Positions 2,896 to 59,209 of a DNA stretch of 64,000 bases are shown here, piece by piece. The notes beneath the pieces are model-generated. The model ran no database searches, was not told where the DNA came from, and saw nothing but the letters and a program-made list of their open reading frames with translations. The number at the start of each line of letters is the position of its first letter. Within the stretch, counting starts at the first letter, position 1. The translations under genes and the position numbers were made by a program. The DNA comes from Fasciola hepatica (taxonomy: Eukaryota > Platyhelminthes > Trematoda > Plagiorchiida > Fasciolidae): assembly GCA_948099385.1 (NCBI GenBank), contig CANUEZ040000210.1, positions 379,501 to 443,500 of the forward strand, read 5' to 3'.

Positions 2896-2897
<2 letters not shown>

Positions 2898-12260: not shown

Positions 12261-12339
12261 TCCAGTCGTAATCATTAAAGGTCGCTGTGTTTCGTGGCCA
12301 GCCGGTAGCTTTATCATTTGTTCAGGGGTGGGTTAAACA

Positions 12340-12528
12340 GCATTTCGCATTCTCTGAGGAACATTTTCAATAGTAAATTGATCTGTCCGTTTCGCGCTTC
12401 AAATCTGTGTGTATATTTGGTGCATTGTTCGCTTGGTAAACCAGCAAGCCAAATTTGGTCAGTCTAAATGGTTTAGTCCAAAAGTTATCGCAGAAAAACA
12501 GGGCGAAGTGCTATTACCATTCCAGTGG
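12340..12528 (+). repeat. Right terminal inverted repeat of Tc1-like copy 1
   Basis: Reverse complement of the left repeat, including the AAACCATTTAGACTGACC block. The outermost bases read CCACTGG on the inward strand instead of CAGTG, so the tip has mutated and the flanking TA is lost. Confidence 0.75.
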
Positions 12529-14195: not shown

Positions 14196-14239
14196 AGTCG
14201 TATTCTTTATTACAAGAACTTCGGGTGGCGGTAAACAAC

Positions 14240-15500: not shown

Positions 15501-15960
15501 GACAGGCGCAATTGTTTTCGCTGTAGACGACTAAAAGGTTGTTTTCAGAATCATTCAAACAGTCTTGCTGATCCCAATGTCTCACATATTGTCTATCAGT
15601 TCACTTGCAGTTGCGGTGACGTATACATTGGCAGGACGAATCGTTGCTTGACTCAAAGAGTGTCAGAACACATACCCAAATGGCAGGCAAGCATGATGAC
15701 GCAACCCGATGGGACAATACACAAAGATGTGAAACTGCCAACTTCTTTGATTGTAAGACACTTGACGGTATCAGGTCCCATGTTTTACCTGACCTAGTGT
15801 TTCAGAGCATTGTTGCCCAATCCAACACCGAAACTATTAGCGTTCAGTGAAACAGTTCTAATCATGAAGCATTAGCCAGCACCCTGTGCACAAGAAACGA
15901 CTGACTCAAAATGTTTGTTTACCTTGGCGTTAACATGATAGACTTCACTCTCCCCAACGT
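15500..15960 (+). pseudogene. PLE GIY-YIG endonuclease pseudogene
   Basis: The frame has Cys residues typical of the PLE linker (FTCSCGDV), then YIGRT with Arg and an R-x-S-E-H motif (QRVSEH), and further down SLIVRHLT. These match the GIY-YIG nuclease of EN-plus PLEs, which nicks target DNA for priming. C-terminal residues PKLLAFSETVLI and QNVCLPW agree with the copy at 28.4-28.6 kb. Stop codons interrupt the frame. Confidence 0.8.
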
Positions 15961-16250
15961 ACTTACTGTAAGAACTTTCGATCGTGCTTACTTTGCTGTT
16001 GCATTTACCTACCCCCCTCCTCGCACTGTGCCACGTATATATAGTGACATGTTTTACGTTCGCGGTTAACAAGAGTAAACAAAACGCTTGCTTCTCGCGA
16101 CTTATGTCCTCTTTCTGTTCTAATTATTTGGATAAAGGGGACGCAGTATTTCAAATCTTTTAAAAGAATGAAATTAGTCAAGTTTGTAATGGAATTTTCA
16201 ATTGTTATGGTGCTCCAAACCACGTTGCATCTAGAGATTTCAATCATGTC
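15960..16250 (+). repeat. PLE copy 1 3' tail
   Basis: Non-coding tail after the endonuclease. The block CGCTTGCTTCTCGCGACTTA and the following ~80 bp recur at about 28710-28790 behind the endonuclease remnant of PLE copy 2, so this belongs to the element. Confidence 0.65.
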
Positions 16251-27454: not shown

Positions 27455-28255
27455 ATTAAAAGTAACAAATAAGCTGGGACACAAGTGTAGAAAAAGAGGA
27501 TGGTGCGTGAAAATACGATTTGATTTAGGGAGATTTTGCACGCAGTTCAGTAATGATCACATATTTGGTCATCAGTACACAACCAAAGTACGGCACAGGT
27601 GAATTCAAGCAAAAAAGCGAATCAGCAAATGGGATTATAGCCAACTGTAGTATGCTTTCTAAAGAGAATTAGGGACTGTAATATTCTGAAAACAGTTCTG
27701 AATTTGAAATGAGCTGCCTGAGCTTACCAAAACGTTTTTTCACAGTCAGATGAAGCAGACAGATTTTCGTGGAAATACACATTTGTGCATTTCGGTGTCA
27801 ATATTACTCTTATTGTTGTGAAGGTGGTTATCATTATAATAATACTACGGCTTATTACATTTAGAATAGAAATACTAAGTGAAATCATGTGTTGTGAGTA
27901 CATACCGGTGGACTTTTTTGAATGCTTAATACTTGTTTGAAAAGACCCATGATCACATCAGATAAACAACATTGGAGAGCGAACCGTTATTTCAATGATT
28001 CCTAATCTTGCCCCTACACATCATATGGGTAACAGATGGGCATTTGATTGGCCGGTGGCCGGGTTGAAAGATACTTTCATAAGCTTCCTCCACACCACAA
28101 ACCTATTCTAAAAATGGCCATTGATTCGGACAACAGCCAATCAAATGCAAAACTGTCATGCATACGATGTATGACAGCAAGATTAGGAATCACCGAAAAC
28201 AACTACTGGCCGTACAATGTTGCTTATTTACTTCATTTATTATTCAGTTTGCGAT
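27455..28255. other. Unassigned sequence
   Basis: A plus frame at 28048-28311 runs into a repeat-like block and has no recognised domain. Nothing else is supported. Confidence 0.3.
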
Positions 28256-29660: not shown

Positions 29661-31679
29661 GTGAGTTTAGTAATATTTCGTGCATTACGTAGGGTAAGAC
29701 GGCATATCGAGGAGTGGTTTGCAAAAGCCAAAACACGATAAGTAAGAAAGGGATTCTTAGCGACCAGTGATCGGAGAGTAGCAATTTTGTCGTGCTGCGG
29801 TTTGAGAGAAAACAAATCGATTTTTACGGAGTGGTGGTTACATCAGTTATCCACCACTTTCAGTTACGTCATCTATTCAAGTGAAGAGAGGTATCCTGTT
29901 TGTAAGCAAGCGACGGTGCTCAGCTAGGCTAACTGGAGGGACTTTACGGATCGCTTCTAAAATCCGTGTTATAGATTGTAAATCCGCTGCTTCGGTAGCG
30001 GTTAGTTGCCTGTGTCGAACTACTATTAACACGTCCGTCGAGGCAATGCAAATCACCCTGAATACGTCTTACTCATTCAGAATGTGTCCCGTGTGGATAA
30101 GAGGCATAACCATAGTACTAAAAATAGTCATCTGGTTTCCACTGCGGAAACAAATCAATTTGTGCTCTTTGATACTTTGAGAAAACTAACTTGACGTCCA
30201 ATCTACGTAGCTTCTCCAACATGAGGAAACAGATAAAGTCAGAACAGTTACTTTATCCTTGGATATCAGAGAGATTACTGGTCGACTGTTAAAGGTTACG
30301 CCTGATGATGCCATAGGTAATGTACAATCCATGACCTTTTTCAGTCGTTTAGTCACAAGATCTCATTTGAGGAGTCCCCTTTGAAAGGCCATCTTGTGTG
30401 TGTAGCTCTGTTCACCTCACTGCTGCTACTGGGAATTCATTAGGGTTTTTCGACAAATCCTTCTATGAAATCCTTCTGACCAAACTGCTCAGAATAACAG
30501 TTATTCATAAGTTCATGCTTGTGGCACTCTGGTTTCTGAACTACCCTGTCTTCTGGGCACATCTTTTTGATGCTTACGGCAACAGACCAAACAAGATTGC
30601 GCTTGTATTTCAGGAGAACAAAATTAGCAACTAGGGTGTACTGTCCTGCCGTAAATGTGCATGGGAAAACTATGTTCGTTGAATCAAACAGCACCTCTTT
30701 CGCATATTGTGAGGGAATGCGCCCAGCTCGTTGCTAATAGACTGCCTGGTTCAATGAAGCAGACGGCACCTGATCGGCTGACCAGAAACACCTACAAGAT
30801 CAGAGCCAGTCAGGCGATCAATGGGTCGGTCGGCGATTAACATTCGACCAGAGCCAAATCAACCAATCCGGGAGCAGCCAGATAAACCAGCCAGATGGGC
30901 CGTTTAGGTCTATCAATTGACCAGTGAGCTTTTATGGACGGCTTTGTTTATGCCGAGCGCATATCTTATATAAATATTATATTCTGTACCAATATAAAGA
31001 AAATGATTCTGAGGCAGAACTGAGCTCTCACTAGAGCTAGTGGGACGGAACACAACACATACCTCGTTATCGCGTTTGTTTTCCCATAGTCTTATGGAGT
31101 TCTTTGGTAGGGTAAACGGTTCAATTATATTCCTGGATGTGCAGCTTCCACGTAGGACGTGGAGAGAGCTAAGAAATCAGCAAAACAATATAACGAGCGA
31201 CAGCCCGCCTTGGATAGGATATTCAAGTGACTTTTCATGCATTCAGCAGAGTTTCGCAGCAGTATTTGAAGCACCATATAAGGTGCCCGTGCGTCGGAGG
31301 AAGTAACGAACTGGGCGACGGTCAATCACAGCCTACGCGAGCCCCTTAAACAGCTGCGCCACAACTCTCGTCCGTTTTCGTTGGAATTATTCTGTTAACA
31401 CAGTCCTTTACCGTGATACTAACTTCAGGAAAATATTTAAAATAATTTGTTATCAATAAGAAACAAGCATCGACAAGTCTCACGTCAACTACCATCAAGT
31501 AACAACAACGTGAATCGGGGCCATCATGTGAAGAAAAGCAAAAGTGATGAATATGGGTAGGCCTTAGTAGCACACCAAGTGGTTATATGACAGTTTTCTG
31601 CATCCTGTGTAACAACTTGCGTTCTTGGTTCAACAAGCCTCCGGAAGTGGCTTACCTGTCTATGGATCGAACTTTTTAA
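29661..31679. other. Unassigned sequence, possible retroelement relics
   Basis: Near 30700 a plus frame reads LSHIVRECAQLVANRL, faintly like the zinc-binding tail of a LINE ORF. Near 31260 a frame reads FEAPYKVPVRR, faintly like an LTR-element integrase tail. Both are too short to call. TATATAAAT at 30967-30975 has no associated gene. Confidence 0.25.
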
Positions 31680-41879: not shown

Positions 41880-42115
41880 CCCACTGGGAAGTGACCGACG
41901 AAGCTAACCCAATGATTAAAACCAGGACAGTTCCTGCGTATCATTGGAATAGTGGTTCGCGCACCATCGATTATTCACTCGCTTTATTCACACCCGACTG
42001 CCCGGACCACAAAAGTTCAGTTGGTAGAGCATCTCCCCGGTAAGCGGAAAGTAGTCGATTCAATTGCAACTCGTGGCGTTCGACTTTTCGATGTGAAAAA
42101 TGCTAGGGGAATTTC
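41880..42115 (+). repeat. tRNA-derived SINE, family A, long copy 2
   Basis: GGGAAGTGACCGACGAAGC, ATGATTAAAACCAGGACAG, CACACCCGACTGCCCGGACC, CAGTTGGTAGAGCATCTCC (a good A-box-like stretch), AGTCGATTCAATTGCAACTC (mutated B box), GGCGTTCGACTTTTCGATG, then GTGAAAAATGC. A direct repeat of the copy at 39750-39990, 2.1 kb away. Confidence 0.65.
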
Positions 42116-44194
42116 CATTACACATCACTAAAACACGGGAGGGGTTATCTCAGCTTTGTACTTCGCGAAATGGATTACGTGCTTCCGAGAAAATTTTGTT
42201 CACCAATCTACATGATATCTAAAACCGGAGTTTCTAATAGCTACCGTTGTGTCGTCGTCCTCGCGGTTAGTTGCGACGAACACAAAGTTATGATCCCCCT
42301 AATGGACTGACCATTCAATGAGGAGCACTGAATCATGCATAAATGAGATCTCTGTGCATGAAATGTAAACTCCGTCTAACTATCATTGTTTTCGATAATC
42401 TAGTTTATTCTTTGACCCATGAAATGCGAAGCATTTGGTTGTTATGACGTAGTCATACAACTGGCCATGACGACAAGCAAGAAAAACATGAGTAGACTGG
42501 TGACAATTGGAGAATGATTTGACGTCCAGAACATGAGAGGAAGATAATAAAACCCCAACCATTAGGCTTGGTTGAGTATCACACGTTTGTCTTACGGGCT
42601 GGGGTTCAAAAATTCTGACTACCAGGGCTGAGAAGCACTGGGTGACATAACCATGTGCTGCGGTCGGTGGTTCAGTTACTTTCGAACCCTTTCTTCATAC
42701 GAAAGATATTCTCACGTTTTCACTTGCTCGACTCGCATTCTTTAATCTACTTCACTTCCGATTCTGAGAAGTTGTGAGGTAGCAAAGAGAACTAGAGTAC
42801 GAACAAACGAGGTTCTTGACCGGAAGAACTAAGGTGAACTGAAACGTATAGAGACCTCACAAGCGCAAAAGTGAGTTTTGTTGATTCTCGCTACGGGCAT
42901 ATGAGCATCCGTCTTAAGCTGACCCGATTTTTTTTCATTCCCAGGTTTCCACTAAAAATGACAGCTTAGTGATATTTTTCTAGTCGTTGAAAGTTTATGT
43001 CATCATTCGTAACTGATCTCCTTGTTCGCTAGTTTCGGATAGACGTTAGATTTAGTAAAATTTTGCTTTGCTGTTCATGAATGGTTAGCTCCGTTGTCAC
43101 TCGGATGATAAGAGCGACTTGTGACCCATGAAACTCAATGAAGCCTCAATGAATGGTGCACAAATCTTGTTGAAACAACAACTTATCTGCTCGGATGAAG
43201 TCTATTGTTCACTGTGGCAAACAATCTCGTTTCTTTAGGTTTGAAAAGTTTTTCTCCAAGCTACCCAGCATGCAGAAAAGACTCCACTTATCGCACAGAT
43301 ATCACAGTTAAAACCGCGGCAAAACCAAAAACTTCAGATATATTTTGCTTTTATACGATGTGAAAATGTTACCAAGTATTCTTTGATCATAACGACGAGA
43401 TCAGCACAGCCATCCGACTGGGATGCATCTGCCTGGGAATGTTCCAAATAGATTCTTTTCTGTACTGTTTATTTATCGAAATACCCATGCCAGGCTGCTT
43501 TTCAGTCTGCCACAGAGTTCATCCACTATTCACGGTGTATGTGTGTAAGTCTAGTGTATAAAACCATGGAAATTGTTGTGTACGCACTGGGTTTGATTAA
43601 AAATTCATGTCACTGGTATTCGCTTCCCCATGAATTTCACTACAAGGCCAACGGAAATACGGAAGGAAGCTTACCGGGGTTGCCTGCCCCAAGGAATACT
43701 TACAGGCCTGATATTTGTGTGTCGGTTCTTTCCACATCCGAACGGCAATATGTGAGCGATGACACACATAGTACATGGTGAAATTCCACAAAACTAACGC
43801 GTCCCAGATTGCGACGGGTCAGACTTTTCGCCGATGAAACAAATTAAGATGTTGGAGAAATAGCAACAAAAATTATGAAGAACACAGAAGAAACAAGTCA
43901 CAGTTAAGTAGGGCTAGCCGTTAGTAAAAAAAAGACGATGTTTTCTTGCTTTTTACCTTACGCTTTCGATGTGTTCTTGTCATTTATGTTCGTCTGACTG
44001 ATGGTTTTATGTGTCAACAAGAAATGGATTTTAAACGGCATGTCATACAGCTTTCACTTCGCTGACTTCTTTTCTGATCCATATCCGTCGACTTCCCTAA
44101 AAAACAACAATCATCATCCCAAACCAGGAAGACAGGAAGCGCCAACCAAAGCCAGTACTGAAGCCAACACTTCTTCGTATCTTTCAGCGAATTT
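42116..44194. other. Unassigned sequence
   Basis: No recognised gene. A plus frame at 43539-43781 overlaps an equally long minus frame and has no domain. Nothing else to report. Confidence 0.3.
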
Positions 44195-44860
44195 ATAGAG
44201 TGGCTATAGCTTCAGTTCTTCTTCCAGCCTTGACCAGCACGCGCGAATAGAGCACGAAACGTTGGAAGACGGGCAGGTATACACAAACCACGCCCAAGCC
44301 ATCGGAGAAGGAGGGAGGCTATCAGCAGCCAACACATCACGGCGGATTTGTTATCACTAGCTAGATGTTCTCACCAGACGCGAGCAATGTTTCGCTGATC
44401 AAACAAGAAATGCCGCTGAGCATCCTAAACAAATAGCTAAGAACAGCAACCTTGCACACTCGGATCTCAAGGGGAATTCTAGTGTCTTGGTGGTGTCGTA
44501 TTTGTTGTAGGTTGTTGAAAGCAACTCTAACACTCGCTGTTAGTAACGTGATCTCCTCCTGAAGACTACCTTCATCTTTGTTCAACTTTGCAATGTACTT
44601 AAAGCTATCGACTACTTCCACCTGATCATCGCATACGGTGATTACAAAAGTACTTTGCTCTCGGAAGGCCCAAAGTGCATAGGAGTATTGGAGCCTTGAA
44701 CTTACTCGCATTGGTTTGAGGGCTTGGATTCCATCGAGTAAGTCCGTTGTAGCTATGCTCCTCTGAGGAGTTTAAACAAACCAAAAATGTCGTGCTTGTT
44801 GAAATACTTTGTACCCGAATTGTGCTCACCGACGACTGATAAGACCAGAATAGCAAACAC
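44195..44860 (-). pseudogene. RTE-type LINE reverse transcriptase C-terminal fragment, copy 2 (minus strand)
   Basis: Minus-strand frames read VVDSFKYIAKLNKDEGSLQE, RIPLEIRVCKVAVLSYLF, QRNIARVW, ASDNKSAV, then LLLRWLGRGLCIPARLP, RALFARAGQGWKKN. This is the RTE C-terminal order (FKYLGS, LLYGCETW, FDHRCLR, RWLGH, RALFAxAGxGWKK). The catalytic palm is not present. The longest intact piece is 44361-44711. It extends about 80 residues further toward the C-terminus than the copy at 20.5 kb. Confidence 0.8.
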
Positions 44861-46424
44861 GCATTCGGTTGCTTTATTTATCACAAATTCGATCATATAT
44901 AAATCAGTGCGTGCATTCAGCGATAAACAAGGTAACAGCTAATTGTAGAACGACCTGTTTGTGCCAGGACGATTGGAGCACAAAACTGAGTCTATGTCCG
45001 ATTGGTCGGATCCCCGTTACTAAACGATAAAGCATAACATCGAGCCGCATTTAGAAACTTTCGTACCACCACAGAAGCACAATGCACAGTGAATCATCAT
45101 GCGAGACAATCTTATCCGTATTCTGAGAGACGTCTCTTCATTCAACTGCTGAAAACTTACCATCGGTTTTCTACACAATAACTAGGATAGAGAGTAAGTT
45201 GCTCTGCAAGAAGATTCACGTTATTACAAAACTTTCAGTGGAATAAGTGGAATACAAGGAAAATAGGAGAAAATAATCAAAAGATGTATTCGAATAGATT
45301 GGGAATTAGTTCGAAAAAAAATCAGCTTGCCACCTCCAAACCTGATTGTCATATGTAAGCCGACCATCAAAAAGTCGACAAATAACTAACTTGTTTCAGG
45401 TTTCCCATTTCAGATTCTTATTTGTGGCTGTTTGTTCTTCAGAGATCGGAATATTCCTACTGAACATCAGTGACGATCGTCCAGTGAGATAAATGTTTAC
45501 CACATCCTAGCTAAGGGATTCAAACCTCGCCCTGAACGGTCACATTAGTGGTAGGCAGTATTTATCTGTCGCCGGGCTGAAAACCTATTGGGACTCTACG
45601 TGGATCACCAATCCAGGCCTCTGAGTCACAGCTGCCGGTTGTCTCTAGTAGTGTAGCGTGCAGTTGAGACAGTTGAGGATATATCCCACCTCCCAGCTCA
45701 ACTGCATTCGTGTGCCGGTATAGAGTGGGAACTCGTTCAGATCACCATTAAGCATGGAAGCTGTTTTCACAAACTAGATGAACCCAATGACCTAAATTAC
45801 TGTAATGAAAAACAAAAAATGTAATAATATAACATGATGAGGCCTTTTTAATCACGGTATGTATGCTTTCTCGTAATATCAAAACTATCCCAGCGAATCC
45901 TGAATCAAACCTTTATTGAATGGGTGCTTTGTAGTTTCTTCTAATCCCCATTTTAATACCACTGTAAGCTGTTGTGGTGAGTTATAAAAACCCTATCTAA
46001 TGGGTACGCATAAAAACGACAATCGCTGCGACAACCACAGATCTTTCGAAAAAGAACTGTGCCAGCTATCGTTGGTCCAGGGGTTACGTGATTCTGCTTA
46101 ACTGTCAGAAATAACAATGATAACTGATCAGTGAAATAAAACTGAATGGCTTGAAAAATCTTCCGCAAGAATCATTCACATCCTCTAGCGTCGCGAATAT
46201 GAACTGCGTTTTACTGTTCCTCTGTTTTCTTACTTCATTTCTAGGCATGTCTCACGGTGTTGAAAAAGAATTCTCCATGCAACTAGCAAATATTAGTAAA
46301 TGAGCGATTTCCCTCCCAGAGCACAAGTTATTACGTGCAATGACGACATTCCAAACTGTCAACATTTACTTATGTGCCGTCAACCAGAATTTAACTTAAT
46401 ATTCATATAAGCAAAGACGAGACG
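44861..46424. other. Unassigned sequence
   Basis: No supported gene. Around 45510-45620 there is a GGGATTCAAACCTCG stretch and a CTATTGGGACTCTACGTGG block that resembles sequence next to SINE family B at 49.3 kb, but orientation is inconsistent, so I do not call a copy. Confidence 0.3.
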
Positions 46425-46560
46425 ATTATCATCTTGGACTTTGGGCAATGACGACCCGGGTTCGATTCCCGTTGCCACCGATCACTTCCCCTTTTGGCAA
46501 TCTTTCACTGGCTATGACCCTCTTCCTGACCTGTTCCACTTTGTTGTATAATAAACTAAA
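46425..46560 (+). repeat. tRNA-derived SINE, family D
   Basis: ATCATCTTGGACTTTGGGC, the B-box-containing GACCCGGGTTCGATTCCCG, TTGCCACCGATCACTTCC, then TTGTTGTATAATAAACTAAA. Parallel blocks occur at 59210-59345 and 63425-63600. Confidence 0.5.
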
Positions 46561-46740
46561 AATGGAAGTCAAGAGAATGTTTTAGGATTTTTAATTCTGA
46601 GCAATTCTGGGGATCTAACTATCGACAGCCTCCTATTTTTTACTTTTTTTCCGAAGATGCTGCGAAATCATATTCAGACAAATATCAGTAAACTGGTTTT
46701 CCTTTTTTGTTAACGTGTCAACAAGGTAATAATCCATTAA

Positions 46741-47058
46741 ATGGAAATTCACGAATTATTACGGGGTTCCTCTACCTCCACTACACATTCCGGGAAAGAA
46801 CACCAGTCGTCGACTGTTTCTCGTCCATTTTGTCTTGTGATTTATCCGGACATATCTAGTGTTTATCAGTTGGAAAAAATCTCGGATTTTTTAAATCAGG
46901 GTTACAACCAGATAGAAACCAACACATTTGATCTGATTATACTGTGTTTGTTTGACCATCTGTCAAGCACTGAAAGCCCAGTTATGAAGAAAATAATCAG
47001 TGCAATCATTTTTCCTGTGTGCGCAACCAAAACGTCCGTGAAACAAGAAAATCTATAA
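46741..47058 (+). CDS. Candidate ORF, 105 codons, unknown protein
   Basis: A true ATG opens MEIHELLRGSSTSTTHSGK and the frame ends at a TAA at 47056. A pyrimidine-rich stretch ending CAACAAG lies just upstream. The sequence has a Ser/Thr-rich start and a more hydrophobic second half (FDLIILCLFDHL). No family recognised. It could be a real exon; length alone does not exclude chance. Confidence 0.25.
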   Translation: MEIHELLRGSSTSTTHSGKEHQSSTVSRPFCLVIYPDISSVYQLEKISDFLNQGYNQIETNTFDLIILCLFDHLSSTESPVMKKIISAIIFPVCATKTSVKQENL

Positions 47059-47092
47059 TCCGTTTTTGCTGTGATTAAATAAACCATACTGA

Positions 47093-47353
47093 GTAACAGA
47101 AACAGATTTTACTCTTCCGTGCAGAAGCAATGTTCTTCACCCATCGTTTGATCTAAGCCACGTATTTTTGACGTTGGGGACGGATCGAAGCAAACCATGG
47201 GACGAAAGCCTCCCAGTACACCGGGTTTGTATGCAGATTAGTGGAGTGTACGTACACAACGACTACTTACAATTTTTCCTCCCAAAAGACAGAAGACAAG
47301 ACGGGTATCCAAGTGTGCCTGAAATCCTGACTTCACTTGGTACTTTCTTCTAA
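47093..47353 (+). CDS. Candidate terminal exon, unknown protein
   Basis: The frame is open from 47093 to a TAA at 47351-47353, with acceptor-like AGTAACAG and TTCCGTGCAG upstream or near its start. The peptide looks protein-like: LTLGTDRSKPWDESLPVHR, then MQISGVYVHNDYLQFFLP, ending LTSLGTFF. No ATG opens it, so it would have to be a downstream exon. It sits just before the PLE fragment that begins at 47413. No domain recognised. Confidence 0.3.
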   Translation, partial: VTETDFTLPCRSNVLHPSFDLSHVFLTLGTDRSKPWDESLPVHRVCMQISGVYVHNDYLQFFLPKDRRQDGYPSVPEILTSLGTFF

Positions 47354-47412
47354 GTGCCCTTCTCAATCCTTAATCAAGTTGTGTCACACCTACGACAGAA
47401 GAAAGTTTTAAA

Positions 47413-48310
47413 TTAAAGTGGAGTGTACAGTGAATCTATTATCTCTCTTAGACTGGTAGTGGGAATTCCTACGGATATTGCTTCTTCATCAACAAATGAA
47501 CAAATAAAGTCTACTGTTTCAATCAAAAATACATTAGTGAACAAAGAAACCACATCCAAAGAGAACATTTGCTTCCCTGACATGTTCACATCTTTAATAA
47601 CTTCAATAAAGTGAAATGTGTCAAGGAGTGTATGCTTTGCAAGTTTTTTGTCGCACGGTTTTAAAAGACTAACTATCCATCGGGCTGTCGTGTGGTATGC
47701 TGAATTTGTCATGGAAACGATGAACTGGAGGGGCAGTCCAGGTTGTGAACTTTTGGAAAGCCATATAGTCGGGGTACGGTGGGGCCTACGGGTTTAAGGC
47801 TTTCAAAGAGGCTAGATGAAATGCAGCCTTGGTCTCTCAGACGTTTCATAGGGGAGGTAATTCCATTTTCCGCCTACTCTGTTTGGTCTTCTTGTGATGC
47901 GTCACGAGTGAACTTAGATTGATCCCACAAGAGATCTAACACCTTTGTCACGTATGAGGCCCGGTCCATCACAACAATACCGGCTCCCTTTTCAGGGTTG
48001 CTTGGGAGAATTTGAGGGTTTCGTTGTAGATCCCTAAGTGCGTCAATGTTTTATTTTGTTAAAGGACCTTGATTACGGGCTTGATATTGCCGATACTGGC
48101 AACATGCTGAGAATAATGACGACTTGAAACGTTCTAAATCCCCTGTCGACCTTGGTATGAGGTCAACAGTTTGTCCTACTAAGTTCTCGAAAGGTATTTC
48201 AGTCTACCTAACTTTCTTTACGACGTGGGCAACAAAACTTCTGACCAAGAGATAAAGCTTCGATCACAACACGGTCGAGTTGTAAACCGGAGAAGTTATG
48301 CACCTGTCGT
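47413..48310 (-). mobile_element. PLE copy 3, N-terminal half only (minus strand)
   Basis: Minus-strand frames follow PLE order from the N-terminus: VHNFSGLQLDRVVIEALSLG (about 48240-48300), ALRDLQRNPQILPSNPEKGA then GIVVMDRASYVTK (about 47950-48050). Next come PTVPRLYGFPKVHNLD (about 47750-47800) and MFSLDVVSLFTNV (about 47530-47570). The match stops abruptly at about 47413, before the AMGSPL block, so the RT palm second half and the endonuclease are missing. Loss of the 3' half is not the usual 5' truncation and suggests a later deletion. Stops and shifts are present. Confidence 0.8.
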
Positions 48311-49329
48311 TCGGGTTCACTTGGGAACTGAGCTTGAGGTATCAGTTGGTTCAGTGCTCTTCAATGACGACAATTTCTTTTCACAGAGGTTGTTTATAAT
48401 CTTATGAACGTATTCCAGGAACCGGCATCTGTCATTTTCTTCTAGTACTTCCGTATGCGGTTGGCATTGGGAAACATTCTTTTCTAACACAATTATCGAA
48501 GGTTTAATAGTATTCTTGAGGTTGGCTGCGTCCAGCACACAGAAAAACAGCGAATAGCCGTTGTGACTCCCCACTGGATGCTTCTAAGTGGAGCCCTCGT
48601 TGACACTTCAGATGTACAAATTAGATTGTTGTGAACGTCATGTCATGCTCTCGCAGATTAGAAGGAAGAGCACACGCGTCACTTAGGCGTGGGTGGTGTC
48701 CATGCATGGGTTTGAATCCCACCCGGGGTCAACAACATTTTTTAACATTTAGATGAACTCAGTTCGCCTAAAATTTGCCAAGTGAACCGAATACTGCTTT
48801 TCACTACTCAATTAAATTCACAAGAATTTGACCTGAAATACTTTTGACTGTTTCCTGTCAGGACGAAATAAAACTACAACTGTTTCATTGGAATTAAAAA
48901 CTTAAAGGGAATCACGTAAGTCCAAAGTTTTTCGATTTTGTGGCCTTGGGCAGTCAAATTCAAGGTCATGGAGGACTATCATATTCTGGCAGCTGGGACA
49001 CGTGAACAGCTTCAGGTGTATTATAAAATGAAAAAACAACCACTCGAAGAATTGGGATGAGACTGCGATTTATAATGTGTGCTAATCAGTCGGACTGTGT
49101 GTGTTTGTGTGTTGATTTACTTTGTTCGTAATTCTCCTTTTTGTATTACGTGTTTTGGCATGAGTACAATGGAGGGGGCTTACCCCATAGCCACAAAGGT
49201 CCAATGCTCTATTTGGGATCACCGGCAACCAAACCGAGAGACGGAGTAGATAACCACATAGAGTCCCAGTAGGTCTGGTGTGGTGACAATCCGGACGAGA
49301 GTGGATTATTTTCCGCCATCATAGTAATC
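48311..49329. other. Unassigned, with one tRNA-like B box
   Basis: The minus frame at 48317-48574 may be upstream PLE copy 3 sequence but shows no motif I recognise. At 48708-48720, GGGTTTGAATCCC looks like a tRNA B box in a CATGCATG-ACCCGGGGTC setting. No full tRNA fold or SINE partner was found. Confidence 0.3.
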
Positions 49330-49400
49330 GGTGATGACGAGGATTCGAACCTCTGACCTCCGAGGTGGTAGTCAAAGGCTCTAAACCAATCGATCACCAG
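49330..49400 (-). repeat. tRNA-derived SINE head, family B (minus strand)
   Basis: Read on the minus strand it begins GGTGATCGATTGGTTTAGA and ends GGTTCGAATCC-TCGTCATCACC. The terminal GGTGAT and ATCACC can pair as an acceptor-like stem, and GAGG-TTCGAAT-CCTC makes a T-arm. A clean anticodon arm is not evident, so I call a SINE head, not a tRNA gene. Confidence 0.5.
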
Positions 49401-50274
49401 TAGTCAAGTTGAATGAATTCCTAATTGAAGTAGACAGTCGTGATCACCAGTCGATAAACAGATGGAGATTTATAAAGGTAATGAGCGAACTTATCAGTGC
49501 ACAGCTGAACACTGAAAGCTTTGGAAACCCTTGCATGCAGCTGTTCTATCTGGCTTGTTTGAACGTATCTTTTGCAGTCCAATTTGGGACTTAAACCTGG
49601 GCTCTGTGATTTTAATTCAAACAAATATGAATCAAGCCATCCGGCCGCACTTTCGTTGGTTTCATTTGCGGGGACCCTACGGTTATGTCCATAGATAAAA
49701 GTAAGCAAAAGTAACAAGAATAACGGCACTGCAAGAGGAAAACTGTATTCCGAACATGACTAACTATAGCGAGTAAAGATATGTACGTATACATCAACAA
49801 AGTATACGAATGTCGGAAAAGGATAAGGCCAGTGAGAAACAAGGTCGTTGTTCACACACAATGCCTGTGTGAGTGATGTTCTAAATAAGATATAGCTGAT
49901 AGCTCACCGATCATCGAACAAACACGTGTGAAGTCCAACACCTGTATGTTATAATGCCCGTCTTTCACTGGTTCTGAACGTCATCAACTAGTCAGCCATA
50001 AAAATATGGACTCGCACGATTTGCTTCCTCTCACTCTACGGGGCCCTAACTGAAAAGCAGGTGTCATTAGTTAGTAGCACAACCATGGTTTTTAGCAATG
50101 AACTCCGCTTTTATGATTCATGAGCAGTTACTTCAATGACACCAGTACAGGATTTTCATCGTACGGCCACAAGGTTAACGAGTGTTATTTATGACAATTT
50201 GGAAATATCATACAATATAAGTAATGAAATTTCGCCTTCATCTTTCGGAACCAAAAATCAACCATGTGGGCCAG

Positions 50275-50365
50275 AAACGAACCGGCGATCTTCCGACTAA
50301 TGAGCTGTTGCTCCGTCGGTGGAACAGTTCCGGCATGGTCAGTCGGGTGCGAACATTGCACTTAA
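50275..50365 (-). repeat. tRNA-derived SINE, family A fragment (minus strand)
   Basis: On the minus strand: GCACCCGACTGACCATGCCGG, CCACCGACGGAGCAACAGC, GTCGGAAGATCGCCGGTTCG. These match the central portion of the family A copy at 41880-42115. Confidence 0.5.
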
Positions 50366-50524
50366 ACACCTAACCTATATTACAATGGAACACAGCAACC
50401 GTTCCGATTTCAGTAGATTGGTAGCCTTGTCGGTCACTTTCCAGAGTGACAAACTGCAAGGCTGAAGGAGATCCAAATAACATTTTGGTATATACGTAGG
50501 ATTTTTGAAGTCACAAGGAGCCAC

Positions 50525-50615
50525 GGCACAGCAACTGTCCGGTAAGCACGGGATCATCGATTGAATTCCAGCTTGCGGGATGTACGTTTCGACTCGGAAA
50601 ATACACTCGAATTCG
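50525..50615 (+). repeat. tRNA-derived SINE, family A fragment
   Basis: CTGTCCGGTAAGCACGGGATC, GATTGAATTCCAGCTTGCGGG, CGTTTCGACTCGGAAAATAC follow the second half of family A. It lies only 160 bp from an oppositely oriented family A fragment. Confidence 0.45.
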
Positions 50616-51556
50616 CATTACCTAAGTCGCTCCGACTCTCCGTGCTATGAATTAATCCTACAGATATTGTACACTACTTTATCGATCCCCATGAAAGTTT
50701 TGATGGCCAGTGAAATTCTGTGAATCCGTACAGTGCACTGTTGTTCTGTTCGATTAGTTAGTAATTATCGGCCAAATCATATCCACCCACCCACAGCCCC
50801 AACTGAGTATAGATTGGATTCAGCAAGAGAATCGATTTGTCACAGAAGTTACCAGATGATCTATCCAGGCTGCCTCTCAATCACCTACTTCAGCAGTTCA
50901 TTTTGAGCTTTTGTCGAAAAGGAACATGCGGTTGGTATATAGATATTCCAACCGTGGCAACAATCCGACTTTTTGTACTATAATCGGCGAGCAGACCACA
51001 AATTTCGAAAGTCTTTTAGTGGAACTGACGGTGTTTATTGGGGCTCAGAATAATGGACAGGAATAATTCGCCTTTTTATTTGTCTATGGTGAAATGACCA
51101 TCACGGATAATCTCAAATGTGGCTGAGCAACGTCAACTGATGTCAGATTAAGAAAAAAGCCAATAGTGGAGAAGATGGATGTGTACACGTAGTGTCCGGA
51201 TGAGTGATATTCCAGATGGAAAGTGTATTGATCGAATGTCCAACAACTCCCAACAGTTCATTATCATGCGTCAAATGGAGCTCAACATTCGGGCAATGCA
51301 AGCACAGTTGATTACGGCGTTCCGATGACCAGATTTGACACAGATTGACTTGACTCAAATTCAAACATCCGCTTTTTTCCTTTCGTGATCTACACTAAGT
51401 AGCTCGGGATTTTTCAGTGACGGAGTTCATTTTTCCACACAGTTGAAGCTGGTGATCAGGAGGGATTGTGAACGGAAAAGTTCGCCTGTTTGCCACATCC
51501 TATTGTAGAGGCTGTTCATGCTTGAACGACTGCCTGGTCGATCGCATGTGATTCAT
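50616..51556. other. Unassigned sequence
   Basis: No gene or repeat recognised; the minus frame at 51143-51364 has no domain. Confidence 0.3.
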
Positions 51557-51680
51557 TGTTTTTGTTTTTGTTTTTGTTGTTGTTGTTGTTGTTGTTGTTG
51601 TCGTCGTCGTCGTCATCGTCTTCTTCCCCTTCTTCTTCTTCTTCTTCGCTGTTGTTGTTGTTGCAATTGTTGTTTCTGTT
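51557..51680. repeat. Compound (TTTTTG)(TTG)(TCG)(TTC)(TTG) microsatellite
   Basis: Successive TTTTTG, TTG, TCG, TTC and TTG runs over ~120 bp. Open frames through it (poly-Leu/Ser, poly-Cys) are artefacts. Confidence 0.95.
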
Positions 51681-52374
51681 ACGATTCTTGTTATCCCGAC
51701 TGTATTACCATGTCCTGTGCTTTGTTCATAACCATCTCATGTGCATGTGCACGAGCTGGTGAGAAACTCGATTCGTACTTGTGCATACTACTTAATTCCA
51801 GTACCTGGTGTTTGGCCTCCTGCTTCGAATAAACTTTGGAAAGTCAGTAACAGTTCATCTCTGCTAATTTAATATATTCCGTCTCGCTTAGACAATGCAG
51901 CACAGAAACTCGTCAATATCCCACTCGTTAAATAGAACTGTGAATAAAAACACCCTCCATTTTGTTAGTTATCCGCCTAGGGCGCCTAGTAAACTGCAAA
52001 ATAAACAAGGGGGTATAGAGTATAAAACCGTTACCTCTCATTTGGACCGTAATCAAATGAATGTGGAGACATACGTGAAAAGCCCATGAATGTGTTACCA
52101 TGGTAAACATCAAACAATAGTAGTGGAGACTGAGTTAAAAAAAAATATGGTAACAAAATTAACGAAGCCGCTGGAAACTAAATCGGTTGGAGTCTAAAGG
52201 GACCGCTGATCTAGTCTCGACAGCCTATTCAAACAAGTTGGTCTAAAACGGAGATCAAATTTTCCGGGAATACGAAGCCGATCGCTGTATGGGAAGCGGG
52301 TTGTTACCGTTCAAAATCCAGTGACGGAAGGGTGCTATATCATGTAGTGCAGATGTTCAGCACACCGTTCAGAG
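51681..52374. other. Unassigned sequence
   Basis: Weak overlapping frames at 51895-52113 only; no recognised domain. Confidence 0.3.
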
Positions 52375-53550: not shown

Positions 53551-53852
53551 ACTTCAAACCACTCTCAGTACTAAACCATGTTCGTAATGGAAACTCAACA
53601 GTAAGCCGCCGATCATATGACCACATGTGCAAATTCTTATTCTTATTTCCATGTAGATAAGTACTTCAGTGAAACAATCACTCTGTTGCCCGATCGAGTT
53701 TATGAACACTAACCCACATGGTTCGCTAGGTGGACCATTAGGACAGCAAGCAGATTGATATTGGCCGAAGCAGTCAATGCAGGTCACACACTAATGTGAA
53801 ATCGGTCGGTAAGCCCCATTTAACGTGTCCACGAACTGTTCTAAAAGGGGTA

Positions 53853-54080
53853 CAGTTCAAGAAATGCTGCTCAATTAACCTTGTTTCTCTCTATTTTTCG
53901 TGAATCCTTTTGATCCAAACCACTTGGAGTGATCGCATTTAGTGTGCTGGTGTGTCTACCCACAACCACTGATTGCTAGCCTGAACCAGATAATTCGATT
54001 TATTCCGGAAAACGTTCCTAAGAAGGTACGAAACGCTATTAAACCCACTCCTAAACCAATGGCAAAAACAACCAGCGGGT
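53853..54080 (+). repeat. Left terminal inverted repeat of Tc1-like copy 2
   Basis: Starts CAGTTCAAG after TA. The reverse complement of 57690-57916. The 87-codon minus frame here (53939-54202) lies within the repeat and is not evidence of a gene. Confidence 0.85.
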
Positions 54081-54239
54081 AAAGAAAAATAATGCCCTTC
54101 GTTGTTGATGATTAAACTACCGGGTCCAGACACGCTTTGAATTATATTTCGGATGGTTTCAAGTTTTATACTACCCCATTCATCGAGGATGGTGAAAGTC
54201 AATTCGTACTAAGTGCCGACGATTCTTCCATTCCCTTAG

Positions 54240-54700
54240 ACTTGTCTAGCTAACAGACCCCGGACTTTTTTAACTGGTTTCAAGTCTGGACTAAAAGTAG
54301 GCCGGCTCCTGGACTTGATTTTCTGGTACAACTGTCATATTCTGATGAGTTCGATTATGTATGGAGGTGTTGTCATGTTGACATTCTGCAAAATAATCTG
54401 GAGTAAGTCAGCTGTCCGTGTACCTCCCAAGACTACCAGCTGGGATTTCCCATTTTTAAAACTAAAACCCAGACCATCACAGAACCACCACCAAAAGCTC
54501 GACGACTAAGGTTCACCTTGGTTTTCCTAAAGTCTTGCCAGTAGTGCGTGATTTCACCAGAACCGTCGGAAGTAAACTGTTCTTGTCGGTAAATATCACA
54601 TTATTCCAGTCAGCACTCCAACTGCATTCGTTCCTGAAACATTTATGCTGATCTCCGAAAAGGTAATCAGTCACTGATTTCATCTTTGTATGCCGGAGGT
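54240..54700 (-). pseudogene. Tc1-like transposase catalytic region pseudogene (minus strand)
   Basis: Minus-strand reading gives SWSADWNNVIFTDKNSLL (first catalytic D retained in TDK), a linker to RRAFGGGSVMVW (about 54480-54510), and NGKSQLVVLGGTRTADLLQI. The end reads RPTFSPDLKPVKKVRGLLAR (about 54245-54305). The family signature is -SPDLNPIENxWGLL-. As in copy 1, the catalytic E of PIEN is replaced by K. The second aspartate block (QQDN) is not preserved. Dead. Confidence 0.8.
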
Positions 54701-55055
54701 GTGATACGGATTGTGGGGATTGCTGTAGATGCAGAAAGCCTACATTATTTGCAAGGATCCCTGCAGGTTCCATGAACTTGTCAGGTGGTTCGAAGCACAG
54801 CGTAAGGGTTCTCACGTGCCCCCCCCCCCCGGGAGATTCTTCTTTGAATTCCATGTTTTGCCTTGACGACATTTGCACCCCATTCCCAACTTGTTGAAGT
54901 TCCCACGCTGAACCAAATTTCAATGGACTCCCGTTGTTCACCACATGTACCTTTCCACCTAGCTCTAAAGACCGTATCCAATTTCTTCGATGATTCATTC
55001 TTAAGTCTTTACAAATCATATAGGAGATGGTTGTGCTGAAATGATCAGAGGTCAT
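54513..55055 (-). pseudogene. Chimeric 180-codon open frame across Tc1-like and PLE-flank sequence
   Basis: The longest ATG-type open frame in the window. Its C-terminal third is Tc1 transposase (SWSADWNNVIFTDKNS). Its first ~15 residues (HFSTTISYMICKD) lie in a block repeated in inverted orientation at 56440-56515, on the far side of the PLE. A run of twelve C at 54819-54830 falls inside the frame and gives a PGGGG stretch. The frame is best seen as an accidental fusion, not a gene. Confidence 0.6.
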
Positions 55056-55085
55056 TCGGATTGGACATAGTTTGCGAATACACAG
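55022..55085 (-). repeat. Inverted repeat arm flanking the PLE pair (left)
   Basis: On the minus strand CAAACTATGTCCAATCCGAA, TGACCTCTGATCATTTCAGC, ACAACCATCTCCTA. The plus strand at 56440-56500 reads CAAACTACGTCCAATCCGAA, TGACCCTTGACCATTTAAGC, ACAACCATCCCCTA. The arms flank the inverted RT and the endonuclease segments. Confidence 0.7.
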
Positions 55086-56010
55086 GAAACACGAGTTGAG
55101 TTGAATGTCCCACTCACTGCACGTGTTAAACGTCTGTTGACAAGGTCCGATATGACGTCTCCTTTGAATGACATACGAATAAACAGTTTCTTCTTGAGGA
55201 CTTCAAAACTTGGGGAACATTTGGATCTATCTCTCAGATTTTGTTCTATAAAGCCCTCAAGGCAACCGTTTTCCCTGAGAGTGTTTTAAACTAAGTGCAA
55301 TTTTTCTTCTATGGTCTCCTGTGAGCATAACTTTCTTACTCGCGAGGCTAAGCATTGGACTAGGTTTATTTTATGTTGTGTGGGTACAAAACTGAGAAAG
55401 TTGGTGTACTGTCCAGCCCATGTTTGCTTTCTATGTATCCTTCTTTGGACAGTTCCGATGATGCTTCTGCGTATAAAGACATCCATAAAGGCCAGCGTGT
55501 CGTTCTTTTCGGTCTCCACCGTGAACTGTGTGGCTTTATGAGCATTGCTGAGCGTTTGTTTCATCTTTTCTACACCGTTGTCCTTATTTCTAAGGCAAAA
55601 AATATCATCCACGTACCGCCGATAAAAGTTCATTTCTTGGATCTCCTGTTTCAATGTCGTGCTCTCTAGTTTTGCCGTGAATATGTCTGCTAAGACTGGG
55701 TCTAATGGTGATCCCATGGCTACACCATCACACTGACAATACAGCTTTCCGTTAAAAAGAAGTTGGACGTCAAAATTTTATCTGAGATGAGTTCTTTCAG
55801 GTCCTTCCGTGGTATGTTTATTGAAACTTGATTAGTTTCAATGTAGTCACAAACGAAATCAGTAGTCTCTAAGATGGGTACGTTGGTGAAAAGCGAGGTC
55901 ACATCCAGAGAAAACACTTGGTCATTTTTTATATTTCGGTGTTTGATGGTTTCAACAAATTCAAATGAATCTTTGAGACTTTATTCGATGAAACTCCTGG
56001 TAATCTATTT
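55085..56010 (-). pseudogene. PLE copy 4, reverse transcriptase segment (inverted, minus strand)
   Basis: Minus-strand frames read SLKDSFEFVETI, then VFSLDVTSLFTNVPILET (about 55860-55920). In the next frame come DGVAMGSPLDPVLAD (55715 downward), FYRRYVDDIFCLRNKD with an intact YVDD at about 55604-55616, and FMDVFIRRSIIGTVQRRIHR. A stop follows, then RENGCLEGFIEQNLRD, and TRAVSGTFNSTRVSCVF (to about 55085). This is the PLE RT palm to linker. It ends before the endonuclease. One frameshift and a few stops break it, so it is younger-looking than copies 1 and 3. Confidence 0.85.
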
Positions 56011-56017
56011 GTTCAGG

Positions 56018-56440
56018 TGCAAATGAAACACAACCTACATTGGCCGAACGGCAAAGCAACTATCCCAAAGAATTAAGGAACATTGTCCACCATGGCTACA
56101 ACATGGAGGAACAGGAATCATAGGGAGTGTCATTCTCAGGCATCTGGTAGACTCAGGTCACAAAATAAGCACGGATTCCGCATTTAAAATCGTCTATCGA
56201 GTGCCCCCAATCCCCACAAACACATCTGCTTACATACACTGGCCAGCGCAGAGGGGAGGATTAGCATCGGTCTTTTCGCACCTGCTCTGTGTACACAAAA
56301 GAAATTCGTCCAAGCCCTCCAATTACCCTGGCCGCAAGTGGATCACCCCTACCCTAGCCACTCAGCTCCGAACCATGTGACCGTCACGACCTAGTCGTGC
56401 AGATCGACACGTCGATCTAACCCCAACCCGTCTCCCCCAC
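56018..56440 (+). pseudogene. PLE copy 4, GIY-YIG endonuclease segment (plus strand)
   Basis: The plus strand reads NTTYIGRTAKQLSQRIKEH, CPPWL, VILRHLVDSGHKI, then FKIVYRVPPIPTNT. After a shift, LCTQKKFVQALQLPWPQVDH gives the typical PLE C-terminus. YIG, the R of GRT and the R-x-x-E-H motif are present. The RT segment immediately to the left is on the opposite strand. The junction lies at about 56010-56018. Residues differ from copies 1 and 2 (QNVCLPW), so this is a distinct PLE subfamily. Confidence 0.85.
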
Positions 56441-57379
56441 AAACTACGTCCAATCCGAATGACCCTTGACCATTTAAGCACAACCATCCCCTAAATGAAT
56501 CATTGAAAACAACTGTTTATCTCTGAAAACGTGTTCTGATGTCACAATGTGCTTATTCCGGAATCAAAATATCCAATTTCGTAACCATCGCTCGTGTTCG
56601 CCTTTGACTCAGTAACTTGGATCACACCTGTATCCGATGGGCCTCCACTCCCATCAGCTTATTTGTTTATCCACACCCACTACGGAGCACATTTTCAAAC
56701 CTTCTTTCTACAACAGTGCAGACAGATGTTATCTACCTGTAACCCGTGCATGCGCTGGGCCCATTGTTGGTCTTATCTTTTCGCATTGCTTCCTAATAAC
56801 TCATAGTTTCTCAACAGTCATTGTTTGTACATCCTTTGGTCCTGCCGAGTCCCCCGTTCATGGATCAACTGGTTTCCCGAGTTCGCATCTGTTTAATCAA
56901 AATGTCTTATCGTGTTGCTTACCGCCCCAACTTCTTTTTCGTGTAGTCTTCATTGTCTTTTAATATTTATGCATTCGTAGTCAAGATTCACAGCGACGTT
57001 TGTGTGTTCAATGAGTCTTTGCGTTGTTTACTTGTCTGGGCCATCTTTGGCCTTCTCGTCCCCTGACTTGGACGGCCGTTCCACACTGTCACCGATCATA
57101 GGTCGTGATTGGTCATTCTTTCGTACCTGTCGCAATAACCGCCTGCCTCTTTGCTCTCGACCCTGCCTGCGTAAGCCCGCCATCCCTTTTGATGGTTGAT
57201 TCCATCTCCATTGGCTGATCTGTACATTCTGACGGAACTGCCCACAAAATGAGGAACGTACCAACCATCGCATGCGTGTTAATCTCTCAGTACGTGGAGT
57301 AAACCAATTTCGTCTTCTCTGACCAAGGATTTGGGGTTCGTCTACAACGAGTCACCCAACCACTGGACCGGAGTCCGGT
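56440..57379 (+). repeat. PLE copy 4, 3' untranslated region and 3' end
   Basis: Follows the endonuclease without coding potential. It starts with the right arm of the flanking inverted repeat (56440-56515) and ends with the block at 57318-57379 that is shared with 26236-26310 and 53472-53550. Immediately beyond it, the minus strand resumes Tc1 transposase. Open frames here (56594-56963 plus, 57028-57273 minus) are incidental. Confidence 0.6.
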
Positions 57380-57440
57380 ACAAACATAGTGATAGAGATC
57401 CTTCAGAAAGTTACGGATAATTACTACAGATCTAGAAATT
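57379..57440 (-). pseudogene. Tc1-like transposase helix-turn-helix fragment (minus strand)
   Basis: Reads RSVVIIRNFLKDLYHY on the minus strand, matching STIVIRNFLSDLDYYG in Tc1-like copy 1 and the second DNA-binding helix of the family. Separated from the catalytic half at 54.2-54.7 kb by the PLE, which shows the PLE inserted into the transposase gene. Confidence 0.75.
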
Positions 57441-57689
57441 TTCTTGGAAATCTAGAACAAGCTAATCCCTGAGTCTTTTTGTGGTTAATTTTCCTTATTC
57501 CAGCTCAGAGGGCATCGAATCACTCTACATCCCCCTGCTCTCATAGATGAGAGGTTGCCAATTCGAATCCGATTGTATAGTTCGAGTCAGCTTTGTTCAT
57601 GAATCACTCGGGATGTGAACAATGTTCAGTGAAATAATCCTCAGGGGAAAAAGCAAGCCACTGACGGCCAAGGTTGTTGCATTTGCAAG

Positions 57690-57916
57690 CCAGTTCGATA
57701 TTTTTGCCACTGGTTTAGGAGTGGGTTTAATAGCTCTTCATATCTTCTTAGGAAAGTTTTCCGGAATGAATCGAATTATCTGGTTCATGCTCGAAATCAG
57801 TGATTGTGGGTAGACACACCAGCAGGCTGAATTCGATCACTCTAAGTGGTTTGGATCAAAAGCATTCACAGAAAACAGAGAAAAGTAAGGTTGGTTGAAT
57901 AGCATTTCGTGCACCG
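57690..57916 (-). repeat. Right terminal inverted repeat of Tc1-like copy 2
   Basis: Reverse complement of 53853-54080, followed by TA. The plus frame at 57622-57813, which looks membrane-like (ATGLGVGLIALHIF), lies within the repeat and is an artefact. Confidence 0.85.
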
Positions 57917-59209
57917 TAATAGAGCAAATCCTTTCTACAGCCGAGGCGATTATGATTAGATTATGTGGACCAGCTCTTCTAGACACTACAGCTGGTTTAG
58001 CCGTACGCCAACGAGGTTGTTCGCCAAAAACTCAGGACCGGTAAACCCCAGCTGTGAATCTGTCCGCAAAATTATCGAAAGGGGACTGACATTCCGTTTT
58101 AGACTCATCTAACACTGTAAATCATATTTGTAACCGCCGTTAGAATTCTGCATTGATACTACATTGACCACAAGAGATGTACCGGAAAGACAGACCTATA
58201 TTGGTCAACCTACATTTTCTAAATGATAACAACATTACTAACATAGCTGTTTCGTTTGACTGAAATTGTTTTTGGGGAACTAAACTGAAATACGCTGAGG
58301 AAAAACCAAAGTATACACACCGAGATGCTGGTAAAAACACTTTTGGGGTTGTCATATGTTACTGATCATCGATCTAACACAGGACGGCCGAGGAATTAAA
58401 CAACAGTGTTACCCAGTCCTTCTGACTGCATTTCAGTTCAGAATAATGTACATTATCCATTCTAATGTTGACTAACCTTAGCATGCCTTACGCATTTCAA
58501 CTTCAATTTCACGGATGGGAAACAGGCGACAGCCAGTTTTTTTCTTCATTCGGTAAATCACAGTGTATAACTAGTTATACAGCATACACTATCAGATGCT
58601 AATCAGACTGGGTAATATGATGAGGCCATCACTGTACAAACGTTTTATTCGGCTTTCAAAGAATCATCAGCCTGTAGTCGGTGGTAGTCCAGTGGTTAGG
58701 GGTTCCAATTCGGCCACTGCCCGTTACTTTATAGTAGACGGTAATGCATTGGCTTCCGGTTCCTTACCAAGTTCGACCTTATACGGTATTCCCCTTCAAG
58801 TCTCAGGGTCAGGATGTCGGTTAACCCAAATCATGCACTGGTCCTTCGAGGCTGCGTGGTATACCCATTACACCGCACTTATCCTCAGGCATGTAAAGAA
58901 CACTGTATCCCTGTTGGCAAGATTAATCCTGTAGTGATTATATTATCCAAGATGGATCTAAACAGTCTGATTTAAGTCAACGTTAAATGATAATGCTGAT
59001 TAGTCCTACCCGGGGAGGAACATATTTACAGTGCTGTCATGATTCTCACAAGTATGTTCGACTCTGGCACTGTGCGATGAATCTTTGCCTAGACAATATG
59101 CTATGCAACTTAAAAGCTTCGACTTGTTTGGTTGTTTTTATTATCTGTGCTCGTTTGTGTTCATGTAATAAAAGCAACAACCACGATGCTCTTCGTATGG
59201 CATGACCTG
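57917..59209. other. Mostly unassigned; possible SINE head
   Basis: At about 58675-58730, CGGTGGTAGTCCAGTGGTTAG followed by GGGTTCC-AATTCGGCC resembles a degraded tRNA-derived head, possibly family D. The 112-codon plus frame (58596-58934) runs through it and is not convincing. A minus frame at 58140-58355 has no domain. Confidence 0.3.

What the first reader, a model, noticed from the sequence alone, without database searches (positions are those of the whole stretch)
55022..56515. PLE copy with its RT half inverted relative to its endonuclease half, resembling 5' inversion
Seen in sequence: RT motifs (VFSLDVTSLFTNV, AMGSPL, YVDD) run on the minus strand from about 56010 to 55085. GIY-YIG motifs (YIGRT, KEH) start on the plus strand at 56018. 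So the upstream end of RT abuts the start of the endonuclease. Established: LINE insertions can carry 5' inversions through twin priming, and PLE terminal repeats may be inverted. Inference: this is either a twin-priming-type inversion in a PLE, with a small deletion between linker and nuclease, or two head-to-head PLE fragments. The short inverted repeat at both outer edges is unexplained.
Basis: partly seen in the sequence, partly recalled or inferred. Interest (0 to 1): 0.75.

Follow-up and report, generated by a model that had tools for sequence, protein, structure and literature searches.

The report
Two-ended Penelope insertion mimicking an inversion
A jumping gene copied itself into this spot from both ends of one cut, so its two halves lie head to head; the same habit shows in about half of its best-matching relatives in this genome and suggests how this poorly understood class of jumping genes inserts.

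Summary
A minus-strand RT piece (55072-55999) abuts a plus-strand GIY-YIG endonuclease piece (55998-56569). They are neighbouring, non-overlapping parts of one Penelope-like ORF; 54 nt of linker are missing.

It is one insertion of 1,584 bp (54986-56569) inside a perfect 11-bp target duplication; five of seven examined paralogs of the host repeat align straight across the site. The outer inverted repeats are the element's own 3' pLTR. So both target ends primed reverse transcription near the RNA's 3' region. The right cDNA stopped in the linker; the left cDNA lacks 494 nt including the endonuclease (CAA microhomology), which mimics an inversion.

Among 23 family loci mapped in this genome, 12 are head-to-head, 11 of these with 10-15 bp target duplications. 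In 12 of 12, exactly one outer end reaches the distal ("tail") start site.

Strict L1-type twin priming is not supported; two-ended target priming is. The kind is known (inverted pLTRs; in-vitro extension of both strands). The endonuclease-less arm and the one-tail count are new to me. Whether the endonuclease was lost during or after insertion, and whether one RNA served both ends, is open.

The parts
54975..54985 (.). left copy of the 11-bp target-site duplication TATCCAATTTC
   Evidence: (0 of 300 shuffles as long)
54986..55074 (-). left cDNA, outer part: element 3' pLTR (L007 about 3016 to 2927), no tail
55072..55074 (-). CAA microhomology at the pLTR|RT junction; 494 nt (L007 2433-2926: linker, endonuclease, start of UTR) are missing here
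   Evidence: the junction was found once in the genome at up to 3 mismatches in 27 bases
55072..55999 (-). left cDNA, inner part: RT domain to linker start (L007 2432 to 1501), one frameshift near 55780, two stops
55998..55999 (.). inner head-to-head junction with 2-nt overlap (TG), no filler
55998..56394 (+). right cDNA, inner part: end of linker and GIY-YIG endonuclease (L007 2487-2878), one stop and one frameshift
56395..56569 (+). right cDNA, outer part: 3' UTR/pLTR plus tail to the distal start site (L007 3077), with a 21-nt deletion
56570..56580 (.). right copy of the target-site duplication TATCCAATTTC
54873..57384 (.). host repeat X (about 0.92 kb without the insert) into which the element inserted; paralogs L010-L014 align across the site
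53851..57919 (-). outer Tc1/mariner-like DNA transposon (about 218-bp terminal inverted repeats, 86%) that hosts X; a related copy at 10948-12509 lacks 54873-57384
   Evidence: the transposase name is my motif reading (recalled), no Pfam match above cut-off

Best explanation
This is one insertion of a Penelope-like retroelement made by two-ended target-primed reverse transcription. Shown: both outer ends carry the element's 3' pLTR in inverted orientation, one with and one without the tail; one 11-bp target duplication brackets both; the inner ends meet with a 2-nt overlap; the left piece lacks the endonuclease. Inferred: the element's enzyme made a staggered double cut; each free 3' end primed on element RNA near the pLTR-ORF border, at two different start sites; the right cDNA ran back to the linker and stopped; the left cDNA copied 89 nt and then skipped (or later lost) 494 nt before continuing through the RT; the two cDNA ends were then joined by microhomology.
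For: Perfect 11-bp duplication. Five of seven examined paralogs align across the site without an insert. Both outer arms match the family 3' end. 12 of 23 family loci are head-to-head, 11 of 12 with 10-15 bp duplications. Exactly one outer end at the distal site (3068-3081) in 12 of 12; probability at most 2.4e-4 if ends chose independently. Of eight pairs compared, five share more private variants than either arm has alone (C63 18 vs 3 and 2; C46 9 vs 1 and 0; C30 8 vs 2 and 1; C24 4 vs 0 and 1; C98 2 vs 1 and 0). Inner overlap of 2-5 nt in 9 of 12 by BLAST coordinates, binomial 8e-6. Published in vitro: a Penelope-like protein cleaves and extends both strands, and the tail is the stretch between its two start sites (PMC11167929, passages).
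Against: Raw RT and EN divergence to the young family differs and, with C58 as outgroup, private divergence still differs weakly (p=0.035). C58 shows no duplication; that of C98 lies in a simple repeat with 15 extra bases; that of C26 was matched by 1 of 200 shuffles. In C20 and C48 the two arms differ from each other more (12/2019, 6/199) than the right arm differs from another locus (7/1847, 4/199), and C156 shares 2 private variants against 0 and 3 unshared, so a common RNA source is not general; window, C58, C3 and C26 were not compared in this way. In four loci (C63, C24, C46, C30) the inner ends lie within 200 nt of each other, which fold-back copying would also give. The in-vitro paper saw no start-site difference between strands, so it does not predict one tail per pair. 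Only 40 of 1,496 first-look candidates were scored.
Confidence: 0.8

Rival explanations
1. Two-ended insertion as above, but the left arm first contained the endonuclease; 494 nt were deleted later between CAA repeats, perhaps because the roughly 530-bp inverted repeat was unstable. This differs from the best explanation only in when the endonuclease was lost, and its odds lie within those of the best explanation.
For: C156 resembles the predecessor: long left copy with EN, right copy with EN (but that right copy lacks the pLTR). CAA microhomology. A 226-nt deletion with a 3-nt overlap exists inside C117. PMC3846280 reports microhomology deletions in many Penelope copies (Discussion).
Against: The missing piece ends 54 nt beyond the right copy's inner end, a coincidence of roughly 2-22% under simple assumptions, whereas a jump over RNA already being copied would predict it.
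Confidence: 0.4
2. Strict L1-like twin priming: the left target end primed internally in the linker.
For: Orientation, small gap between segments and single target duplication all fit.
Against: The inverted half carries 89 nt of the 3' pLTR at its outer edge, so it started in the RNA's 3' region, not in the linker.
Confidence: 0.05
3. Two independent insertions lying head to head.
For: Raw divergence differs between halves.
Against: One perfect duplication around both; paralogs show one simple target; 10 of 11 other head-to-head loci also have one duplication around both copies.
Confidence: 0.03
4. Fold-back (self-priming): one cDNA folded back and copied itself, as proposed for rotifer Penelope palindromes.
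For: Arms share private variants in several loci; inner ends within 200 nt in 4 of 12 loci.
Against: Inner ends about 1.0-2.2 kb apart in 8 of 12, this locus included; the proximal outer end often falls near where single-orientation copies also start (3047-3056 by BLAST ends in 7 of 11); the distal end is on one side only.
Confidence: 0.07
5. Assembly artefact.
For: None seen; reads were not available.
Against: Target duplication, decay on both halves, and other, differently placed loci with the same architecture.
Confidence: 0.02

Closest known systems
Inverted-pLTR Penelope insertions (rotifer Pen2a_Av, Pen2_Av, Pen5/6; permuted inverted Pen3), PMC3846280
   Same: inverted pLTRs at the outer edges, optional tail on one of them, target duplication of 8-10 bp in several copies
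   Different: here the left copy lacks the endonuclease, so RT and EN occur once each in opposite orientations; duplication 11 bp; that paper favoured self-priming, which fits this locus poorly
Poseidon of Anolis carolinensis (PAc) in vitro reaction, PMC11167929
   Same: both target strands cut and extended; two adjacent internal start sites whose interval is the tail
   Different: biochemical assay; no paired, inverted product in the passages I read; here genomic products are read, with a different start site at each end
L1 twin-priming 5' inversion (start of abstract of PMC2837659 in a search listing; the rest recalled)
   Same: inverted upstream segment joined to a sense downstream segment within one target duplication
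   Different: in L1 the inverted segment starts internally; here it starts at the element's 3' pLTR

Membership tests
Endonuclease-containing Penelope-like element | RT of the Penelope type followed by GIY-YIG endonuclease in one ORF (in family copies) | tested here: met
   L007 has an 841-codon stop-free frame covering RT and EN in one orientation; relatives
Endonuclease-containing Penelope-like element | tandem or partial-tandem copies creating pLTRs | tested here: met
   about 2.65-kb units in C24, C26, C67, C20, C5
Endonuclease-containing Penelope-like element | optional tail extension at one end | tested here: met
   distal end on exactly one side in 12 of 12 head-to-head loci
Endonuclease-containing Penelope-like element | hammerhead ribozyme in the pLTR | tested here: inconclusive
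   no ribozyme match in Rfam for window 53800-58000 or L007 2850-3200
L1-type twin-priming inversion | inverted 5' segment next to sense 3' segment, one target duplication | tested here: met
L1-type twin-priming inversion | inverted segment primed internally, with no 3'-end sequence at its outer edge | tested here: not met
   89 nt of 3' pLTR at 54986-55074
Inverted-pLTR Penelope insertion | inverted pLTRs at both edges within one target duplication | tested here: met
Inverted-pLTR Penelope insertion | one arm is a continuous copy through EN and RT | tested here: not met
   left arm lacks L007 2433-2926 and the right arm has no RT

The most novel reading that the evidence does not exclude
Penelope-like integration is an ordered two-ended reaction: one target end always starts at the distal (tail) site and the other at a proximal site. 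In this copy the second cDNA jumped over the stretch of the same RNA already being copied, leaving a 54-nt gap, so both cDNAs shared a single RNA molecule. If so, the tail marks which end was primed first.
Probability: 0.25. Interest if true: 0.7.

Novelty: new variant of a known kind. Interest (0 to 1): 0.5.

Why it matters
How Penelope-like elements join their second end, and why their insertions so often carry inverted repeats, is open: the rotifer paper proposed self-priming (PMC3846280, Discussion), and the in-vitro paper calls the later steps yet to be validated (PMC11167929, passage). Single target duplications around head-to-head pairs, with one tail per pair, are what two-ended target priming with two start sites could leave behind, and they make the question testable in any genome with many young copies. 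The locus also warns that an apparent RT/endonuclease inversion need not be an inversion.

Tried and rejected
Independent insertions, strict L1 twin priming, fold-back and assembly artefact were weighed and set aside as described under rivals. A co-phylogeny test on relatives' proteins had no power: Spearman 0.65 for the window's RT versus EN distances, but 36 of 88 foreign ENs did as well or better (88 of 120 relatives kept). Raw RT/EN divergence first looked like two templates; polarising removed most of that with the most distant outgroup, less with the others. PDB sequence searches gave only weak RT matches, one irrelevant match at E=0.34 for EN and none for the linker piece. Pfam scans of nine host-repeat and transposon pieces found no family above its cut-off. 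Rfam found no ribozyme. Inverted arms were looked for around three other Penelope stretches of the window: the longest were 62 nt at 76% at 28000-28188, not flanking the piece at 29967-30643, and 32 nt at 78% at 45583/49243, which do bracket the piece at 47437-48529 and were not followed. A test of the two-ended pattern in a second Penelope stretch (window 14039-16000), an EN-only genome search, and a genome search for the inner-junction pattern did not complete.

Full report
What is there. On the minus strand an RT domain runs from 55999 down to 55072; on the plus strand a GIY-YIG endonuclease runs from 55998. Both match full-length Penelope-like proteins. In P0121 the RT part is residues 108-417 and the EN part begins at residue 438. 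The spacing FxGD to YxGRT is 64-65 residues in the 46 of 120 relatives in which my text pattern found both anchors, so about 17-20 linker residues are absent here. The RT part has one frameshift and two stops, the EN part one stop and one frameshift, so this is a decayed copy.

The family. The window lies in a 1.5-Gb genome (C210:379501-443500). A search with 55022-56515 returned 136 matches, which I grouped into 23 loci, the window included; 40 of 1,496 first-look candidates were scored, so these are the best-matching copies. In 22 of 22 other loci at least one RT-EN pair lies in one orientation, with 54 nt between the two matched stretches (58 in C24b, where the RT match begins 4 nt later). 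The reference copy L007 has an 841-codon stop-free frame and lies in a tandem array of about 2.65-kb units. In L007 coordinates the window's left cDNA is about 3016-2927 plus 2432-1501, and the right cDNA is 2487-3077.

One insertion. Left and right of the element stands the same 11-mer, TATCCAATTTC (54975-54985 and 56570-56580; 0 of 300 shuffles gave a match as long). The insert is 1,584 bp. The surrounding repeat X has paralogs elsewhere (45 matches listed, 40 of 1,117 candidates scored). Of the seven fetched as loci, five (L010-L014) align straight across the site at 62-69% local identity, without room for a second copy of the 11-mer; L015 and L016 give no alignment that spans it. X itself sits in a Tc1/mariner-like transposon whose relative at 10948-12509 lacks it. 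This rules out two separate insertions for practical purposes.

Age of the halves. Against L007, RT differs at 94 of 931 sites, EN+UTR at 27 of 569 and the left arm at 6 of 89; RT versus EN+UTR p=1.8e-4. That speaks against one template. With C167 as outgroup, changes private to the window are 52/928 (RT), 21/516 (EN+UTR) and 5/89 (arm), p=0.21 for the first two; with C58 67/931 versus 25/569, p=0.035. With C117, C63, C48 or C184 the RT count stays at 83-85 of 931 while EN coding has 19-20 of 390-391; these four are close to L007. The excess sits on the branch to L007: 39 RT versus 3 EN+UTR sites via C167, and 26 versus 2 via C58, whose own RT and EN form one continuous copy. I conclude that the halves are of about equal age and that the young family's RT region has a history of its own; the data do not exclude two related templates.

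The family habit. I mapped all 23 loci. Twelve are head-to-head (window, C48, C98, C156, C58, C63, C46, C30, C3, C20, C24, C26) and eleven have one orientation (C116, C67, C184, C5, C56, C16, C24b, C176, C117, C61, C167). Eleven of the twelve have 10-15 bp target duplications; C58 has none, that of C98 lies in a simple repeat with 15 extra bases, and that of C26 was reached by 1 of 200 shuffles. In all twelve exactly one outer end is at 3068-3081; the other is at 3013-3048 or, in C156 and C20, at 2846-2848. If ends chose independently this would have a probability of at most 2.4e-4. Inner ends overlap by 2-5 nt in 9 of 12 by BLAST coordinates (binomial 8e-6). Private variants were compared in eight pairs: shared ones outnumber unshared ones in C63, C46, C30, C24 and C98, but not in C20, C156 or C48; in C20 and C48 the arms differ from each other more than the right arm differs from another locus. 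C24 holds four units on each side, the innermost 5'-truncated, 19.8 kb in all, within one 12-bp duplication.

Mechanism. A Penelope-like protein from Anolis cuts and extends both strands of a target in vitro, and the tail is the stretch between its two start sites; no start-site difference between strands was seen (PMC11167929; outline and passages). Rotifer Penelopes carry inverted pLTRs, several within target duplications, with an optional tail on one of them, and were explained by self-priming (PMC3846280; passages and whole Discussion). The loci here fit two-ended target priming better: inner ends are about 1.0-2.2 kb apart in 8 of 12, so most are not simple fold-backs (four are within 200 nt and could be), and the proximal outer ends often lie near where single-orientation copies also start (3047-3056 by BLAST ends in 7 of 11). 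The window copy differs in that its left arm lacks 494 nt including the endonuclease, at a CAA microhomology. This junction occurs once in the genome at up to 3 mismatches in 27 bases, so I found no sign of a line of endonuclease-less elements. Whether the piece was skipped during copying or lost afterwards is open; C156 resembles an undeleted predecessor, and C117 has a 226-nt internal deletion with a 3-nt overlap.

Standing. The element is a known kind of Penelope-like insertion with an unusual internal gap. What goes beyond the papers I read is the count: head-to-head pairs within single duplications and exactly one tail per pair. My literature searches listed no paper whose title or shown abstract announces such a count, in a library that lacks most subscription journals; I read passages of two papers only, and one whole section. 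The sample is one family, biased to close matches; a second family could not be tested because the genome search did not complete.

Noticed in passing
C24:4237516-4257303 (joined L048-L050): Four Penelope units on one strand head to head with four on the other (innermost ones 5'-truncated), each 99.9-100% identical to the reference unit, 19.8 kb within one 12-bp duplication: apparently a single very recent insertion.
   Followed up: partly
L007 1501-2432 versus 2487-3077: The young family's RT region carries many changes of its own (39 of 928) where its EN+UTR carries 3 of 516; recombination or fast RT evolution in the active lineage.
   Followed up: partly
C156 and C20 (L032, L029): One outer end lies at about 2847 of L007, inside the end of the EN coding region, suggesting a third start site.
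   Followed up: no
window 47437-48529 (-): A Penelope-like copy with only its 5' half (N-terminus to early RT), the opposite of the usual 5' truncation; no remainder found within 42000-52000. A 32-nt inverted pair at 45583/49243 brackets it.
   Followed up: partly
window 13833-15932 (+), 29967-30643 (-), 53626-53862 (+): Further decayed Penelope-like pieces; none matched the studied copy at the nucleotide level within the window.
   Followed up: no
window 53851-57919 and 10948-12509: Tc1/mariner-like transposon with long terminal inverted repeats; one copy contains repeat X, which contains the Penelope insertion (three-level nesting).
   Followed up: partly
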